From Pseudomonas putida (lineage in GTDB: Bacteria; Pseudomonadota; Gammaproteobacteria; Pseudomonadales; Pseudomonadaceae), in contig NZ_MKZO01000012.1 of NCBI RefSeq assembly GCF_001941965.1, positions 186,001 to 250,000 on the forward strand: a stretch of DNA of 64,000 nucleotides. Reading direction: 5' to 3'. How positions within the stretch are numbered: position 1 is the stretch's first letter; every line of letters starts with the position of its first letter. Made by a program: the position numbers and the translations under genes. Positions 5,056-12,780 of the stretch are shown here, in pieces. A model generated the notes under the pieces. It saw only the letters and a list, made by a program, of their open reading frames with translations. It was not told where the DNA came from and did no database searches.

Positions 5056-5149
5056 GGGACAGAAGATTGTCCCAGTTCCGTGATGCCGTTTCGAGCCAAT
5101 GATGCCTGCTCTCCTACGGCGATCAGGGTAACTGTTACCCCCTGCGGAA

Positions 5150-5466
5150 AGGTGTCGCATTTAGCCGCAAAACTTCCCCGGTTTCCGACTTTCTTGTAGG
5201 CAATTTCCCAAGCATACTGCCAGCCCCCTCCTGGTGGTTGCGTCCCGTGGAAACGGTGCCTAGGCTGCGTCAGTCGTCGCACATTCGACGACCGGATTAG
5301 CAGTCCGACATTGGTAACCACCAGCAGCCTTTATGGCGGCTGTACGTGTGGGCACCTCCGGGTGCGCCGGGTTCCCAATGTCCTGGTCTGCTAACTCACG
5401 TACGGTCGCCACCCTTCGTCTAGCAGCGACTCGTGGCGACTCCGATCCCGACATTGGAGTTACACC
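5150..5466 (+). promoter_or_regulatory. structured RNA leader, unit 1
   Basis: This is the leader of the first 80-aa gene, with at least four conserved paired elements. The stem CTGTACGTG (5340-5348) pairs with CACGTACGG (5397-5405) and encloses a GGCACC hairpin. TCGCCAC (5406-5412) pairs with GTGGCGA (5433-5439). TTAGCAG (5297-5303) can pair with CTGCTAA (5388-5394). Variable segment a GACATTGG (5307-5314) is complementary to b CCAATGTC (5375-5382), and b is also complementary to c GACATTGG (5450-5457), whose last bases belong to the Shine-Dalgarno GGAG (5456-5459). Pairing b:c would hide the ribosome site; pairing a:b would free it. Related leaders lie at 6752 and 7628. Confidence 0.75.
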
Positions 5467-5709
5467 ATGAAAAAGCTCGTACCCGATCCACCGCCTACGC
5501 TCTGCGTCGGCCCCGGACTCTCCCATGAAGAAGCCATCAAGCGCGCAGCGGAGCATCTCAACAGAGCCATTCTTGACTCTGCTTACCTTCCTGACCCTCC
5601 CGATGCCCGCCACAAGGAAATGCTCGACGGCGCACGGCTGAACATGAGGATTACCAAGGCATTGCTGGCGCTCGCGGTAGCGGCATCGCCGGTGACCGTA
5701 GCAGTATGA
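5467..5709 (+). CDS. 80-aa Pseudomonas small protein, copy 1 of 3
   Basis: An 80-aa protein beginning MKKLVPDPPPTLCVGPGLSH. A helical middle (EEAIKRAAEHLNRAILDSAY) follows and the end is hydrophobic (ALLALAVAASPVTVAV). The MKKxVPDPP start and length resemble the small Pseudomonas proteins filed under DUF3077/DUF6124, but I am not certain of membership and know no function. GGAG lies 7 bases before the ATG, inside the switching segment of the leader. It differs from copies 2 and 3 only at residues 11 (T/V), 46 and 55. Leader, gene and terminator-like hairpin form one self-contained unit. Confidence 0.85.
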   Translation: MKKLVPDPPPTLCVGPGLSHEEAIKRAAEHLNRAILDSAYLPDPPDARHKEMLDGARLNMRITKALLALAVAASPVTVAV

Positions 5710-5712
5710 AGG

Positions 5713-5742
5713 AAGGCCGCGGAGTTCAACTCCGCGGCCTTC
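5713..5742 (+). terminator. terminator-like hairpin of unit 1
   Basis: A perfect dyad, AAGGCCGCGGAGTT and its complement, starts 3 bases after the stop and ends in CCTTCTC. The stem is very stable, but the T-run is short. Confidence 0.7.
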
Positions 5743-5791
5743 TCGCAGTTCGGATTTGCACTGCGAAGCCCAACCATTGGACGGTACCTAC

Positions 5792-6571
5792 ATGCTCGAC
5801 CTCGACACCACCTTATTGATCCTCGCCCTCTTCGCCTTCTGCGGCGGCCTGATCGACGCGGCCGTCGGCGGTGGCGGTCTGGTCCAGGTTCCCGCCCTGC
5901 TCCACGCCCTCCCCCAGCAAAGCGTCGCCACCGTCCTGGGCACCAACAAACTGGCCGTGCTGGGCGGCAACCTCGCCTCGATCTTCAGCTACGCGAAACG
6001 CATCCGCATCGTCTGGAAGCTGATGCTGCCGACCATGCTCTCGGCCTTTCTGTTCGCCTTCGTCGGCGCCTGGTCGGTGTCCCTGATTCCCAAGTCGGTC
6101 ATGGAGTCGGTGGTCTTCGTCATCCTGATCGCCATGGCGGTCTACACCTTCGCGAAAAAGGACCTGGGCCAGACCCATGCGGATCTGACGCTGGGCAGGA
6201 AACAGGTGCTCCTGGGTGTGTTGATGGGTGGCCTGATCGGTTTCTACGACGGCCTGTTCGGCCCAGGCAGCGGCAGCCTGCTGCTGTTCGCCTTCGTCAA
6301 ATGCTTCGGCTTCGATTTTCTCAATGCCTCCGCCTCGGCCAAGCTGGTCAACCTCGCCACCTTTACGGCTGCCCTGCTGTTTTTCATTCCGGCAGGTCAT
6401 GTGCTGTGGGCCATTGGTGGGCTGGTGTGCCTGAGTAATATGGCCGGGTCGGTGACCGGGACCTTTCTCGCGCTGCGCTATGGCAGCGGGTTTATTCGGG
6501 TGTTCTTTTTGATTCTGCTGGTTTTCCTGATTGGGCGGATGGCGCTGTCGATCTTTGGTATCACTGCATGA
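5792..6571 (+). CDS. TauE/SafE (TSUP) family permease
   Basis: A 259-aa inner-membrane protein with about eight hydrophobic segments. The first repeat carries GGLIDAAVGGGGLVQVPALL and the second MGGLIGFYDGLFGPGSGSLL, the paired TSUP signatures with GxxDxxxGxGGG-like loops. The family moves sulfonates, sulfite or related anions; the substrate here is unknown. I chose the ATG at 5792 (MLDLDTT), giving a normal TSUP N-terminus; an upstream ATG at 5756 would add 12 polar residues. It overlaps the small gene at 6568 by ATGA, so the two are probably cotranslated. The gene separates unit 1 from units 2 and 3. Confidence 0.9.
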   Translation: MLDLDTTLLILALFAFCGGLIDAAVGGGGLVQVPALLHALPQQSVATVLGTNKLAVLGGNLASIFSYAKRIRIVWKLMLPTMLSAFLFAFVGAWSVSLIPKSVMESVVFVILIAMAVYTFAKKDLGQTHADLTLGRKQVLLGVLMGGLIGFYDGLFGPGSGSLLLFAFVKCFGFDFLNASASAKLVNLATFTAALLFFIPAGHVLWAIGGLVCLSNMAGSVTGTFLALRYGSGFIRVFFLILLVFLIGRMALSIFGITA

Positions 6572-6729
6572 CCAGCAGCAGACAGAGCTGCAGCGACGCC
6601 GAACGCACCCAACTCATGGATGCCGCTCAGCGCGTACTGGTCGGATGGCAACCCAGCGCCGAACAGCAACCGGTGGAGGAAAAACTGGTCAAGCTGATGC
6701 AGGAGCGATTCAAGGGGCGGACCACCTGA
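6568..6729 (+). CDS. 53-aa small protein coupled to the TSUP permease
   Basis: The ATG overlaps the permease stop (ATGA), which suggests translational coupling. The product begins MTSSRQSCSDAERTQLMDAA and ends EEKLVKLMQERFKGRTT, a charged, helix-forming peptide with no membrane segment. A damaged copy of its 3' end recurs at 7472-7612 with a longer, different tail. The duplication that made units 2 and 3 therefore started inside this gene, and this copy's tail may itself be shortened. No family recognised. Confidence 0.5.
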   Translation: MTSSRQSCSDAERTQLMDAAQRVLVGWQPSAEQQPVEEKLVKLMQERFKGRTT

Positions 6730-6751
6730 ATAGCTGATTCCGATCGCCAGA

Positions 6752-7079
6752 AGATGTCGCATTTAGCGGCAAAACTTCCTCGATTTCCGACTTTCTTGTA
6801 GGCAATTTCCCAAGCATACTCCCCGACCCATCTTGGTGGTTGCGTCCCGTGGAAACGGTGCCTAGTCTGCGTCAGTCGTCGCTCATCGACGACACGGATT
6901 AGCAGTCCGTCGAAATGATGAAACCACCAGCAACCAGTTAATGGCGGCTGTGCGTGTGGGCACCCTTTGGTGCGCCGGGTTTTCTCATTTCACCGGTCTG
7001 CTAACCCACGCGCAGTCGCCACCCTTCGTTTAGCAGCGAATCAAGTGGCGAATTCATCGATGAAATGAGGAAACACGCC
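6752..7079 (+). promoter_or_regulatory. structured RNA leader, unit 2
   Basis: Same architecture as unit 1 with different variable bases. TTAGCAG (6899-6905), CTGCTAA (6998-7004) and a second TTAGCAG (7030-7036) are retained. Segment a GAAATGA (6912-6918) is complementary to b TCATTTC (6985-6991). Segment b extended as CTCATTTCA (6984-6992) is complementary to c TGAAATGAG (7061-7069), which runs into the Shine-Dalgarno GAGG (7067-7070). CTGTGCGTG pairs with CACGCGCAG, and TCGCCAC with GTGGCGA, with wobble or compensatory changes against unit 1. Confidence 0.75.
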
Positions 7080-7322
7080 ATGAAAAAGCTCGTACCCGAT
7101 CCACCGCCCGTACTCTGCGTCGGCCCCGGACTCTCCCATGAAGAAGCCATCAAGCGCGCAGCGGAGCATCTCAACAGAGCCATTCTTGACTCTGCTTATC
7201 TCCCCGACCCTCCCGGTGCTCGCCACAAGGAAATGCTCGACAGCGCACGGCTGAACATGAGGATTACCAAGGCGTTGCTGGCGCTTGCCGTGGCGGCGTC
7301 ACCGGTGACCGTGGCTGTATAA
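7080..7322 (+). CDS. 80-aa Pseudomonas small protein, copy 2 of 3
   Basis: Identical to copy 1 except Val11, Gly46 and Ser55. I chose the ATG at 7080, which matches copy 1 and has GAGG at 7067-7070; the open frame could begin at 7065, but that start lies inside the leader's segment c. Strong protein conservation next to a changed leader segment argues that both protein and pairing are kept by selection, although recent duplication also contributes. Confidence 0.85.
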   Translation: MKKLVPDPPPVLCVGPGLSHEEAIKRAAEHLNRAILDSAYLPDPPGARHKEMLDSARLNMRITKALLALAVAASPVTVAV

Positions 7323-7324
7323 GT

Positions 7325-7355
7325 AAAGGCCGCGGAGCTCAGCTCTGCGGCTTTC
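7325..7355 (+). terminator. terminator-like hairpin of unit 2
   Basis: AAAGGCCGCGGAGCT pairs imperfectly with AGCTCTGCGGCTTTC; several changes against the unit 1 hairpin fall on both arms and keep most pairs. It is followed by TTGCG. Confidence 0.6.
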
Positions 7356-7419
7356 TTGCGTCTCCGCTCGGCCCAACCGAAGGACCATGGCTGAGAGGGA
7401 AACGGGTTAATGTTCCAAC

Positions 7420-7469
7420 TGAAAGTAAATCTGTCCTCGTTTTCTGAAAATAAATCTGTCCCCGTTTTC
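7420..7469. repeat. two AAATAAATCTGTCCCCG-type short repeats
   Basis: GAAAGTAAATCTGTCCTCG and GAAAATAAATCTGTCCCCG lie head to tail. Other copies are at 8285, 8340, 8746 (inverted) and 8781. They look like non-autonomous ends of a mobile element; no transposase is attached. Confidence 0.7.
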
Positions 7470-7471
7470 AT

Positions 7472-7612
7472 GGTCGGCCAGCAAGCCGGTGCCGAATAGC
7501 AATCAGCAGCGGAAAGCTGGTCAACCTGATGCAGGATCGATCCAAAGACGTGAGCTATAGGGAGAAAGGCAAGAAGCTGCATGAGGCGATTCTTGCTGAC
7601 CTGGATAGCTGA
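7472..7612 (+). pseudogene. broken second copy of the small gene at 6568
   Basis: The bases align with 6650-6720 but carry an in-frame TAG (GCCGAATAG where the intact copy has GCCGAACAG) and an indel. In the shifted frame the tail reads LVNLMQDRSKDVSYREKGKK and then LHEAILADLDS before a stop. That tail is coherent and longer than the one at 6568, so it may show the ancestral C-terminus. Confidence 0.5.
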
Positions 7613-7627
7613 TCCTGCTAGCCAGAA

Positions 7628-7944
7628 GATGTCGCATTTAGCGGCAAAACTTCCTCGATTTCCGACTTTCTTGTAGGCAATTTCCCAAGCATACTCCCCG
7701 ACCCTTCTTGGTGGTTGCGTCCCGTGCAAACGGTGCCTAGTCTGCGTCGGTCGTCGCTCATCGACGACACGGATTAGCAGTCCGTAATGTGGACGCAGCA
7801 GCACGCCTGTCATGGCGGCTGTGCGTGTGGGCACCTTCGGGTGCGCCGGTTTCCATGTTCCGGTCTGCTAACCCACGTACAGTCGCCACCCTTCGTTTAG
7901 CAGCGATCCGTGGTGCATCCATCCACCAACATGGAGATTCACCA
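7628..7944 (+). promoter_or_regulatory. structured RNA leader, unit 3
   Basis: Same elements: TTAGCAG (7774-7780), CTGCTAA (7865-7871), a UUCG-capped GGCACC hairpin, and CTGTGCGTG pairing with CACGTACAG. Variable segment a AATGTGGA (7786-7793) pairs with b TCCATGTT (7852-7859) through six Watson-Crick and two G-U pairs. Segment b pairs perfectly with c AACATGGA (7928-7935), which overlaps the Shine-Dalgarno GGAG (7933-7936). Confidence 0.75.
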
Positions 7945-8187
7945 TTGAAAAAACTCGTACCCGATCCACCGCCCGTGCTCTGCGTCGGTCCTGGCCTCTC
8001 TCATGAAGAAGCCATCAAGCGCGCAGCAGAGCATCTCAACAGAGCAATTCTTGACTCTGCTTATCTCCCCGACCCTCCCGATGCTCGCCACAAGGAAATG
8101 CTCGACAGCGCACGGCTGAACATGAGGATTACCAAGGCGTTGCTGGCGCTTGCAGTGGCGGCGTCACCGGTGACCGTGGCTGTATAA
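7945..8187 (+). CDS. 80-aa Pseudomonas small protein, copy 3 of 3, TTG start
   Basis: Same protein as copies 1 and 2 (Val11, Asp46, Ser55). Where the others have ACCATGAAA, this copy has ACCATTGAAA: one inserted T destroys the ATG but leaves TTG in frame at the same codon, 8 bases after GGAG. Translation should be weaker. A longer frame from 7789 would read through the leader and is unlikely. The copy may be on its way to silence or be a low-expression variant. Confidence 0.75.
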   Translation: MKKLVPDPPPVLCVGPGLSHEEAIKRAAEHLNRAILDSAYLPDPPDARHKEMLDSARLNMRITKALLALAVAASPVTVAV

Positions 8188-8189
8188 GT

Positions 8190-8220
8190 AAAGGCCGCGG
8201 AGCTCAGCTCTGCGGCTTTC
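8190..8220 (+). terminator. terminator-like hairpin of unit 3
   Basis: Same sequence as the unit 2 hairpin: AAAGGCCGCGGAGCT then AGCTCTGCGGCTTTC, starting 2 bases after the stop. Confidence 0.6.
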
Positions 8221-8284
8221 TTGCGTCTCCGCTCGGCCAAACCGAAGGACCATGGCTGAGAGGGAAACGGGTTAATGTTCCAAC

Positions 8285-8361
8285 TGGAAATAAATCTGTC
8301 CCCGTTTTCCTCTGGGGAAAAGAACTCAGCTTCCTCCTCCTGAAAATAAATCCGTCCCCTT
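8285..8361. repeat. two AAATAAATCYGTCCCC short repeats
   Basis: GGAAATAAATCTGTCCCCG at 8285 and GAAAATAAATCCGTCCCC at 8340, same family as at 7420. Apart from these, 8188-8489 holds only the unit 3 hairpin and its shared tail. Confidence 0.65.
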
Positions 8362-8489
8362 CTCAGTCCCTTCTCAGCGGCCCACTTTTCAGCGGTCCTT
8401 CCAGGGAAGAAATATCTCGCAACACTTACAGCATTGAAATGATGGCACACAGTCCCTATGAATTTCTTTTAAATCAGAGGGAGTTGCAT

Positions 8490-8711
8490 ATGTCTAGTTT
8501 CAAGAAAGGTGACGTGGTGGTGATGCGCAGCGGTGGTCCGAAGATGACTGTTACTGACATCGGGGATTACAGTGGTTCTGGACTCGGCCCAGAGGATGGC
8601 GTCAAGTGTCAGTGGTTTGAAAAAACAAAACTCTTCGAAAAAGTTTTTGACGCCGTAGCTTTGAAAATCTATACAGCACCGTCAATAGGAGTTGTGTCGA
8701 CCCGCGCCTGA
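8490..8711 (+). CDS. YodC-like (DUF2158) small protein
   Basis: A 73-aa protein. MSSFKKGDVVVMRSGGPKMT begins a small beta-barrel typical of YodC/DUF2158, followed by VKCQWFEKTKLFEKVFDA, the second family block. The function is unknown. The start at 8490 has GAGGGAG 7 bases upstream, much better than the upstream ATGs at 8439 and 8442. The gene is isolated in an AT-rich accessory stretch, flanked on both sides by AAATAAATC repeats. Confidence 0.85.
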   Translation: MSSFKKGDVVVMRSGGPKMTVTDIGDYSGSGLGPEDGVKCQWFEKTKLFEKVFDAVALKIYTAPSIGVVSTRA

Positions 8712-8745
8712 CTCTATCGTGCGCAACATGTTGCTATCTTGCGCA

Positions 8746-8807
8746 AAAACGGACGAATTTATTTTACAGCCAACTCTAATACTGAAAAATAAATCCGTCC
8801 CTTTTCG
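8746..8807. repeat. inverted pair of the AAATAAATC repeat
   Basis: An inverted copy (AAAACGGACGAATTTATTTT) and a direct copy (GAAAAATAAATCCGTCCC) face each other about 12 bases apart. This is the arrangement expected of a small non-autonomous element, or of the fused ends of a lost one. Confidence 0.6.
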
Positions 8808-8930
8808 GAAGGGCCTTTTGGTAAAACAGAAACAGTATTAAATTAAGCAATCGAGAGCGAAATCCACATACAAAGCCATTCAAATCAAGACACACCCAAC
8901 CATCTAGACACATCAAAAGGATCTAAAGAA

Positions 8931-9719
8931 TTGAAATATTCATCTAGAGATTATGAACAGTTCACCCAGGCTTTACACCAGCGAATAATCGAAGAAGAAG
9001 GCTATAGCAACGTCGACGTCTTGCACAACCAAAACTTCATAGGGAAAAGCAAAGCAAAGCACCAGATAGATGTATGCTGGACGTTAGAAATCGGCAGAAT
9101 TCAACAACTTTTCTGTGTTGAATGCAAATACTGGAAAAACAAAGTTAAAAAAGATCACATCGCAAGCTTTATTACAAAGCTGGAAGACATCGGCAATGCA
9201 AGAGGGATTTTTGTTACAACTAACGGCTTCCAGCTAGGAGCCACTAGACTTGCAAAACATAGCGGAATAACACTGATAAACGCCACCTACACAATAGAAA
9301 ATAGAGAAGCCACAATGAGCTTCTGCGCGCCTCGATTCCACGACTTTCGCACAACTTTTGAAGATGTATCATCCGAGATACTTGAAGAACTTGGAAGACT
9401 AGAAAGGTCGTCAGCCAGTGCAGCCGATGTAAAAATCTTTGACTCCACTGGCGAGCATATTGGCTCACTTACCGATCTAACGGAACAATTTAGCCACGAA
9501 AATGACGGTCATTACCAGCAAGCAATAGAAGATAGATTTATATATGTGCTAGGAAACCCGATTCAAATAAAGTACGTGGAATACACATACGAACAAAACA
9601 TAATAGGAACACCACTAAAAGGCAACTATGAAATAGCCAATGCCAAAGCTCACTACATATTTGATGACAGAGAAATTTCGGCGATATTAAACTCACACAG
9701 AAGCCCCTCATTTGACTGA
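8931..9719 (+). CDS. Mrr-like PD-(D/E)XK nuclease family protein
   Basis: A 262-aa protein from a TTG start with AAGGATC upstream. The first 130 residues fit a restriction-endonuclease fold: KHQIDVCW supplies the Asp, [15 protein letters not shown] the (D/E)XK core, and [26 protein letters not shown] the strand-helix typical of Mrr_cat proteins. The last half has no recognised domain and may bind DNA or a partner. It lies alone in AT-rich DNA with codon use unlike its neighbours, so it was probably transferred. No methyltransferase is adjacent, which fits a modification-dependent or solitary defence nuclease. The stop lies immediately before an IS66 fragment, so the very C-terminus could be altered. 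Confidence 0.75.
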
Positions 9720-12673: not shown

Positions 12674-12780
12674 GCGGCCCCACCAGCCACACCCCGGCAC
12701 ACAATGTTCCCGCTATGGCTGCTCCCTTCCGGGCCTGACCAGGTTTACGGGTAATCGTTGCGGGGGGACCGATGGGGCCA
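12674..12780 (-). ncRNA. ffs: 4.5S RNA, signal recognition particle RNA
   Basis: The minus strand reads CCTGGTCAGGCCCGGAAGGG followed by AGCAGCC, the invariant SRP domain IV loop bound by Ffh. Outer arms GGCCCCA and TGGGGCC close the stem, as in the roughly 114-nt E. coli 4.5S RNA. The ends are approximate. Confidence 0.95.

What the first reader, a model, noticed from the sequence alone, without database searches (positions are those of the whole stretch)
5150..7944. Three leaders with private, covarying a-b-c segments: a likely two-state RNA switch on translation
Seen directly: the leaders at 5150, 6752 and 7628 share a scaffold, but each carries a different short segment in three places. 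In unit 1, a and c are GACATTGG and b is CCAATGTC. In unit 2, a is GAAATGA, b CTCATTTCA and c TGAAATGAG. In unit 3, a is AATGTGGA, b TCCATGTT and c AACATGGA. In every unit b can pair with a or with c, and c overlaps the Shine-Dalgarno bases. Scaffold pieces repeat the logic: TTAGCAG occurs upstream and again near c, and CTGCTAA sits beside b. The stem CTGTRCGTG with CACGYRCRG also changes on both arms. Bases differ among copies while pairing stays, which random drift would not produce. Inference: an on/off switch of riboswitch, thermosensor or sRNA-responsive type, with private segments so that units do not cross-talk. I know of no description of this motif.
Basis: partly seen in the sequence, partly recalled or inferred. 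Interest (0 to 1): 0.93.

Follow-up and report, generated by a model that had tools for sequence, protein, structure and literature searches.

The report
Private antisense locks on Pseudomonas genes
Three neighbouring small genes in this (likely Pseudomonas) chromosome each carry in their leader a copy of the C4 antisense RNA known from phage P1, with matching target sites that differ from gene to gene, and the genome holds 38 such RNAs, so each one is predicted to switch off mainly its own gene.

Summary
Each leader holds an Rfam C4 antisense RNA (RF01695, 73-82 bits, cut-off 45) in the order of phage P1 c4: a1-b1, C4 with loops b' and a', then a2 and b2 over the Shine-Dalgarno bases. Likely mechanism: C4 antisense repression, not a riboswitch or thermosensor.

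New here is the scale. This genome holds 38 C4 RNAs; 137 of 149 genus genomes have C4 over the cut-off, against 11 of 228 others drawn from the class. Over 137 units from five genomes (one sampled in part) a' matches a2 exactly in 88 (0.7% expected), and b' pairs better on average with its own target than with others'. Usual targets are small DUF6124/DUF3077-type proteins: 76 of 88 DUF6124 genes have C4 just upstream. Paralogues with similar proteins carry keys about as different as unrelated units. One promoter-like element occurs 23 times in this genome, always at these units (one degenerate). Orthogonality is imperfect, and the proteins' role is unknown. Searches listed no account of this repertoire.

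The parts
5194..5218 (+). unit 1 promoter-like element TTGTAGGCAATTTCCCAAGCATACT
   Evidence: 23 matches (<=3 mismatches) in the whole genome, 0 for the reversed control; 22 lie at C4 units, 1 at a degenerate unit. No sigma-70 consensus site was found in 5100-8400, so its promoter role is inferred.
5260..5311 (+). unit 1 c4-a1b1 match (RF03163), with a1 5297-5303; b1 5307-5314 runs just past it
   Evidence: 40.8 bits, E 3.1e-8, below the family cut-off of 46.7; letters
5329..5416 (+). unit 1 C4 antisense RNA; b' loop 5375-5382, a' 5388-5394; mature RNA by P1 offsets would be 5335-5413
   Evidence: RF01695 73.7 bits; positions
5420..5457 (+). unit 1 target a2 (5420-5426) and b2 (5450-5457) over the Shine-Dalgarno bases
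   Evidence: cognate pairing -12.6 kcal/mol, rank 1 of 26
5467..5709 (+). unit 1 target ORF, 80 aa, MKKLVPDPPP...
   Evidence: no Pfam family at 1e-3; predicted loose N-terminus plus two-helix hairpin, mean pLDDT 79
5713..5741 (+). unit 1 inverted repeat after the ORF, terminator-like (AAGGCCGCGGAGTT/AACTCCGCGGCCTT)
   Evidence: read; not listed by the terminator scan
6796..6820 (+). unit 2 promoter-like element
6862..6913 (+). unit 2 c4-a1b1 match, with a1 6899-6905; b1 6912-6918 runs just past it
   Evidence: 32.9 bits, below cut-off
6937..7026 (+). unit 2 C4 antisense RNA; b' 6985-6991, a' 6998-7004
   Evidence: RF01695 73.3 bits
7030..7069 (+). unit 2 target a2 (7030-7036) and b2 (7061-7069)
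   Evidence: -14.6 kcal/mol, rank 1 of 26
7080..7322 (+). unit 2 target ORF, 80 aa, MKKLVPDPPP... (the longer ORF starts at 7065)
7671..7695 (+). unit 3 promoter-like element
7737..7788 (+). unit 3 c4-a1b1 match, with a1 7774-7780; b1 7786-7793 runs just past it
   Evidence: 36.6 bits, below cut-off
7808..7893 (+). unit 3 C4 antisense RNA; b' 7852-7859, a' 7865-7871
   Evidence: RF01695 81.7 bits
7897..7935 (+). unit 3 target a2 (7897-7903) and b2 (7928-7935)
   Evidence: -12.1 kcal/mol, rank 1 of 26
7945..8187 (+). unit 3 target ORF, 80 aa, TTG start, same protein family

Best explanation
Each leader carries a C4-type antisense RNA and two target sites for it, and the RNA, predicted to be cut out of the leader by RNase P, likely pairs with a2 and b2 to block translation of the small protein encoded just downstream. 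Shown here: the C4 match, the order of sites, the covariation of both loops with both targets, the overlap of b2 with the Shine-Dalgarno bases, and 38 such RNAs with differing keys in this genome. Inferred from phage P1/P7: processing, action in trans, and repression. Inferred with less support: pairing of C4 with a1-b1 in the precursor acts as decoy or self-control, and the private b' loop (plus variants of a') limits cross-silencing among paralogues. The shared upstream element suggests that the units of this species are transcribed together as one regulon. The target proteins have no known function.
For: Rfam matches in all three leaders. P1 record: a1, b1, C4 (77 nt), a2, b2, icd, ant in the same order; P1 C4 itself matches at 68.8 bits, and in P1 a1 and a2 both pair 7/7 at C4 position 57 and b1/b2 pair 7/8 and 8/8 at position 43, while a' starts at position 58-62 in the window units. 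Cognate b':b2 pairing in this genome. In 137 units of five genomes a' equals the reverse complement of a2 in 88 and of a1 in 92, against 0.7% and 2.1% for non-cognate a'. In the top-scoring C4 of each of 29 other genomes (26 of them outside those five) a2 is exact in 29 of 29 and a1 in 28 of 29, and b' pairs at -15.4 against -8.8 kcal/mol. From the protein side, 76 of 88 DUF6124 and 16 of 24 DUF3077 genes over the cut-off in five genomes have C4 within 500 nt upstream on the same strand; about 0.2% expected by chance in the genome computed.
Against: No expression or processing data for this organism. The a1b1 matches in the window are below the family cut-off. Orthogonality by duplex energy is imperfect: among units with a target box within one mismatch, the cognate b2 ranks first for 73 of 115 keys and the cognate b1 for 56 of 123, and in this genome the mean best non-cognate energy (-12.7) is not far from the cognate mean (-14.8). 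12 of 38 C4 RNAs here lack an ORF with an a2 site. The targets are not icd-ant.
Confidence: 0.86

Rival explanations
1. The leader is a purely intramolecular two-state switch: b pairs with a (on) or with c (off), with no separate antisense RNA.
For: a1-b1 and a2-b2 are both complementary to the same C4 loops with similar strength (113 units with both boxes: b1 mean -12.4, b2 mean -13.4 kcal/mol; b2 stronger in 66, b1 in 47), so exclusive pairing is possible.
Against: The element between the two target sites is a full C4 domain with its own covarying stem, a known processed antisense RNA; no riboswitch or thermometer family matched the window at the gathering threshold, and in 5140-8000 only C4 and c4-a1b1 matched at E up to 0.1.
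Confidence: 0.08
2. Type I toxin-antitoxin-like addiction: the small proteins are toxic when not silenced, and each private C4 is the antitoxin of its own gene, so that duplicated units must diverge in key to stay independent.
For: Small proteins under a linked antisense RNA; 48 within-genome pairs (not independent of each other) with protein identity of at least 0.80 have mean key identity 0.56, close to unrelated units (0.52) and shuffled keys (0.50), against 0.84 for the C4 scaffold; P1 C4 controls icd, annotated as inhibitor of cell division.
Against: No toxicity evidence; the modelled proteins are a loose tail plus helices with no significant structural match in the one library searched for each; P1 Icd is not a credible relative of the targets (best BLAST E 0.012 to a protein of G017; nothing significant in the part of the phmmer output printed). 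Duplicates with identical keys also exist.
Confidence: 0.25
3. The units are phage immunity pieces kept or decaying in the chromosome: their C4 silences incoming phages that carry the same key, and the linked gene is a by-product; orphan C4 RNAs are immunity alone.
Against: Of 137 units 88 keep an exact a2 and 104 have an ORF after the C4, which plain decay would not predict; viral contigs may include host DNA at prophage edges; no shared key between host and an infecting phage was tested.
Confidence: 0.2
4. Chance or duplicated sequence: the apparent covariation only reflects common descent of three tandem copies.
For: The three units are tandem duplicates with 89-95% identical ORFs.
Against: The private segments are the parts that differ, and they pair; the same holds in 29 other genomes, each sampled once, and in permutation tests.
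Confidence: 0.01

Closest known systems
C4 antisense RNA of phages P1 and P7 (RF01695) with a1-b1 and a2-b2 targets (RF03163)
   Same: RNA fold, order a1-b1-C4-a2-b2-gene, a2 just after C4, b2 shortly before the start codon, both target pairs complementary to the same two loops (P1 only was examined)
   Different: Target is a small KxVPDPP protein, not icd-ant; chromosomal; 38 copies in one genome; not shown to take part in lysogeny
Group 1 C4-like sRNAs of Acinetobacter baumannii AB5075 (PMC5320573; passages and the Group 1 section read)
   Same: Multi-copy (21 sRNAs, 15 full-length) bacterial C4-like RNAs with a variable target loop, expressed and apparently processed at a GG start
   Different: The passages and section that I read name no linked cognate target genes; here most C4 RNAs have their own a2-b2 site and gene, and the key covaries with it
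Type I toxin-antitoxin systems with an antisense RNA per paralogue (recalled, not from a call)
   Same: Would work alike: a linked RNA silences a small protein; paralogues keep separate recognition
   Different: The antisense RNA lies in the leader of the same transcript and has a C4 fold; toxicity not shown

Membership tests
C4 antisense RNA (RF01695) | Covariance model score above the gathering cut-off | tested here: met
   73.7, 73.3, 81.7 bits against 45, full length 1-87
C4 antisense RNA (RF01695) | Two unpaired segments (a', b') complementary to a target upstream of and over the ribosome-binding site | tested here: met
C4 antisense RNA (RF01695) | RNase P cleavage giving a separate RNA of about 77 nt that starts with GG | not testable with these tools
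   All three units begin GGCGGCT at the P1 offset, predicted lengths 79, 81, 77; processing itself untested
C4 antisense RNA (RF01695) | Represses translation of the target in trans | not testable with these tools
   Needs reporters
P1-type c4/icd/ant immunity operon | Downstream icd and ant genes | tested here: not met
   Downstream ORFs are KxVPDPP proteins; P1 Icd has no credible relative among the 104 C4-linked ORFs compared. Some other C4 units of the genus do precede Bro-N antirepressor-like genes
c4-a1b1 (RF03163) | Score above the gathering cut-off upstream of C4 | tested here: inconclusive
   Window units 32.9-40.8 bits against 46.7; in the genome 6 of 25 matches are over the cut-off
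DUF6124 / DUF3077 proteins (window ORFs) | Pfam score above cut-off | tested here: not met
   No family at E 1e-3; at E up to 1 only an unrelated sub-cut-off match; profile comparison of the window family with DUF6124 gave probability 2.2. They share only the N-terminal KxVPDPP-like motif and predicted long helices
Riboswitch / RNA thermometer | Match to a described family | tested here: not met
   Only C4 and the SRP RNA matched in the window at gathering thresholds

The most novel reading that the evidence does not exclude
Pseudomonas has turned the phage C4 antisense RNA into a genome-wide set of dozens of lock-and-key pairs: one promoter element drives a whole regulon of small DUF6124/DUF3077-type proteins, each silenced by its own C4, with keys that turn over much faster than the genes they guard, as in an arms race against cross-silencing by siblings and by phages carrying the same module; orphan C4 RNAs act as key-only immunity.
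Probability: 0.25. Interest if true: 0.85.

Novelty: new variant of a known kind. Interest (0 to 1): 0.6.

Why it matters
C4 is a classic phage immunity RNA studied mainly in two phages (recalled). Here the same device is present in about 40 copies in each of three fully scored genomes of one genus (38, 39 and 42 over the cut-off), most of the units examined with a linked target gene of unknown function (104 of 137). That gives a natural experiment in how antisense specificity evolves in paralogues (three sites must change together), a ready set of partly orthogonal translational repressors for engineering, and a regulatory handle on DUF6124 and DUF3077, which had 0 and 1 hits in the paper library searched.

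Tried and rejected
Riboswitch or thermosensor: no family match. Membership of the window proteins in DUF6124/DUF3077: not met. Structure as a clue to function: the window-family model (mean pLDDT 79) was compared with PDB only and the DUF6124 model (mean pLDDT 70) with BFVD only; neither had a match with E at or below 0.001; the low-confidence tails make this weak. Window protein in phage or plasmid records: none; a DUF6124 protein: one phage record, no plasmid. P1 Icd as a relative of the targets: rejected. Orphan C4 keys aimed at siblings: their best predicted partners range from -10.2 to -19.4 kcal/mol; 6 of 12 are stronger than the mean best non-cognate partner of the other keys (-12.7) and 4 of 12 reach the cognate mean (-14.8), the strongest being C17:112107 on the C67:242274 target (-19.4); with only 12 and no control for loop length I assigned no trans targets. 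The upstream element as a genus-wide promoter: rejected; with up to 5 substitutions of 26 it was found in 22 of 38 units here but in 1 of 99 units of the other four genomes; the ten units per genome that I printed there show other recurring upstream sequences by eye. Scripts that failed or misled: searches (wrong start-motif pattern, repaired; loci of minus-strand hits not turned, repaired), and the P1 a' check (wrong offset, gave 2/7; repaired). The two non-motif ORFs were added by hand; two other mechanical ORFs, after C17:112107 and C21:16326, were left out. The a' parser is shifted by one base in some units (for example TGCTAAC), which should lower the exact-match counts. Searches used frames one residue long or short at the N-terminus for units 2 and 3.
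Full report
What is there. The three leaders are real and match the description. cmscan places the C4 antisense RNA family RF01695 at 5329-5416, 6937-7026 and 7808-7893, full length, 73.7, 73.3 and 81.7 bits against a cut-off of 45. Upstream of each lies a match to RF03163, 'a1, b1 targets of C4 antisense RNA' (40.8, 32.9 and 36.6 bits; below that family's cut-off of 46.7).

Same anatomy as phage P1. The annotated P1 record AF234172 has, in order, putative a1, putative b1, C4 (77 nt), a2, b2, icd, ant1; its C4 scores 68.8 bits. Both P1 a sites pair 7/7 with C4 position 57, and b1 and b2 pair 7/8 and 8/8 at position 43. In the window a' starts at position 58-62 of the C4 match. PMC5320573 (passages and its Group 1 section read) summarises the P1/P7 mechanism: RNase P frees C4, a' and b' pair with the target, and b' partly covers the ribosome-binding site. 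That processing and repression happen here is inferred.

How many. This genome (7.06 Mb, 79 contigs) has 38 C4 matches, all over the cut-off, and 25 a1b1 matches, 6 over the cut-off. Fully scored counts in four others are 42, 43, 30 and 10, of which 3 of the 42 and 1 of the 43 are below the cut-off. Of 228 other genomes drawn from the class 11 have C4, with 1-4 matches each (stricter filters, at most 18 candidates scored per genome, so weak or low-ranked matches may be missed). The genus is taken as Pseudomonas because the listed homologues that bear an organism name are Pseudomonas (one search lists 120 of 1916); the G genomes themselves are unnamed.

Do the keys fit? In this genome 24 of 38 C4 RNAs are followed by an ORF with a KxVPDPP-type start; two more small ORFs were added by hand. 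For these 26 the loop pairs with its own 35 nt before the start codon at -14.4 kcal/mol on average against -7.2 for others, first rank for 22 of 26 (two ties), best of 20,000 permutations -9.6. With 99 units of four other genomes added (137 in all; 16 of the 42 of G005, all of the other three), a2 is the exact reverse complement of a' in 88 and a1 in 92 (non-cognate 0.7% and 2.1%). Mean cognate b' energies are stronger than non-cognate ones in every genome for b2 and for b1, though in the smallest set (G003, 9 units) the b2 mean (-12.1) did not beat the best of 5000 permutations (-12.3). Among units with the box within one mismatch, cognate b2 ranked first for 73 of 115 keys and b1 for 56 of 123, so orthogonality is clear on average, not absolute. 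The top-scoring C4 of each of 29 genomes other than this one (26 of them not among the five) gave a2 exact in 29 and a1 exact in 28, -15.4 against -8.8 kcal/mol, with the cognate below the 5th percentile of non-cognate pairs in 22 of 29; these 29 hold only 19 distinct keys and are the best-scoring matches, not a random draw. The C4 stem covaries as well.

What is guarded. Of the 137 units 104 have an ORF of at least 50 aa after the C4, 72 of them with a PDPP-like start. Scanned representatives include DUF6124 (PF19619), DUF3077 (PF11275) and, in other genomes, Bro-N antirepressor-like proteins, while some match nothing. From the protein side, 76 of 88 DUF6124 genes over the cut-off in five genomes, and 16 of 24 DUF3077 genes, have C4 within 500 nt upstream on the same strand (78 of 88 and 19 of 24 within 1000 nt; some genes match both models). 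The three window proteins fall in neither Pfam family but share the N-terminal motif and predicted long helices after a loose start. Their function is unknown; the library searched has one paper with DUF3077 (a passage of PMC9630843 read: a base insertion in a DUF3077 pseudogene of an evolved P. putida) and none with DUF6124.

Keys change faster than genes. In 48 within-genome pairs (overlapping, so not independent) with protein identity of at least 0.80, the C4 scaffold is 0.84 identical on average but the loop only 0.56, close to unrelated units (0.52) and shuffled loops (0.50). In the window, units 2 and 3 have 95% identical ORFs and 34% identical key columns. Copies with identical keys also exist (G005 3628832/3629682, G003 13691/4778550, G017 332576/336368) and dropped out of the 48 because one copy of each had no ORF called. 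Diversifying selection and gene conversion of the ORFs are both possible; I did not separate them.

One regulon per species? TTGTAGGCAATTTCCCAAGCATACT occurs 23 times in this genome with up to 3 mismatches and never in the control; 22 lie upstream of C4 units and the 23rd at a degenerate unit on contig C10 that appears to have lost most of its C4. So 16 of the 38 C4 RNAs lack it at this stringency. It was found in 1 of 99 units of the other four genomes. No sigma-70 consensus was found. Shared transcription is an inference.

Phage link. A Pseudomonas phage record (EU982300) has C4 and a DUF6124-like gene divergent from prtR. Whether host C4 RNAs silence phages was not tested.

Prior art. The C4 motif in proteobacteria is known (PMC2864571, two passages read), and 21 C4-like sRNAs are described in one Acinetobacter baumannii genome (PMC5320573). 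Searches for 'C4 antisense RNA' (15 of 17 listed), 'c4-a1b1', 'RF01695', 'c4 antisense' with 'Pseudomonas' (6), a mixed search (20 of 330 listed), 'DUF3077', 'DUF6124' and variants (6 of 8 listed) showed no account of the Pseudomonas repertoire or its targets. The library holds only open-licence papers; apart from the four papers read in passages (PMC2864571, PMC5320573, PMC9630843, PMC12197685) I saw listings only, and no supplements. Verdict: a known RNA kind in an expanded and differently aimed form.

Noticed in passing
L299 603-800 (G000:C10): A unit with promoter element, a1b1 match and DUF3077 gene but no C4 match: most of the C4 appears deleted, with a P3-like piece just before the start codon.
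   Followed up: partly
L053 (G000:C21 16214-16512) and L041 (G000:C58 321065-321241): C4 RNAs in tandem, three at C21 and two at C58, without a called target gene carrying an a2 site, each with a different loop.
   Followed up: partly
L138, L164 and others (G017, G005): C4 RNAs in front of Bro-N antirepressor-like genes, apparently the nearest chromosomal likeness to P1 c4-ant.
   Followed up: partly
viral contig loci L179-L298: A family of about 52 aa (M-ALIPSKIRALAHRRMALAALHANSSL...) recurs after C4 on viral contigs and in several genomes; function unknown.
   Followed up: no
window 7421-7469, 8287-8309, 8341-8360, 8782-8806: Repeats resembling AAATAAATCTGTCCCCGTTTTC lie before and after unit 3; possibly a dispersed intergenic repeat (read by eye).
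   Followed up: no
window 12678-12774, minus strand: Bacterial small SRP RNA, 77.5 bits.
   Followed up: no
window 8490-9719: A DUF2158 gene and an Mrr-type restriction endonuclease domain gene lie just after the cluster.
   Followed up: no
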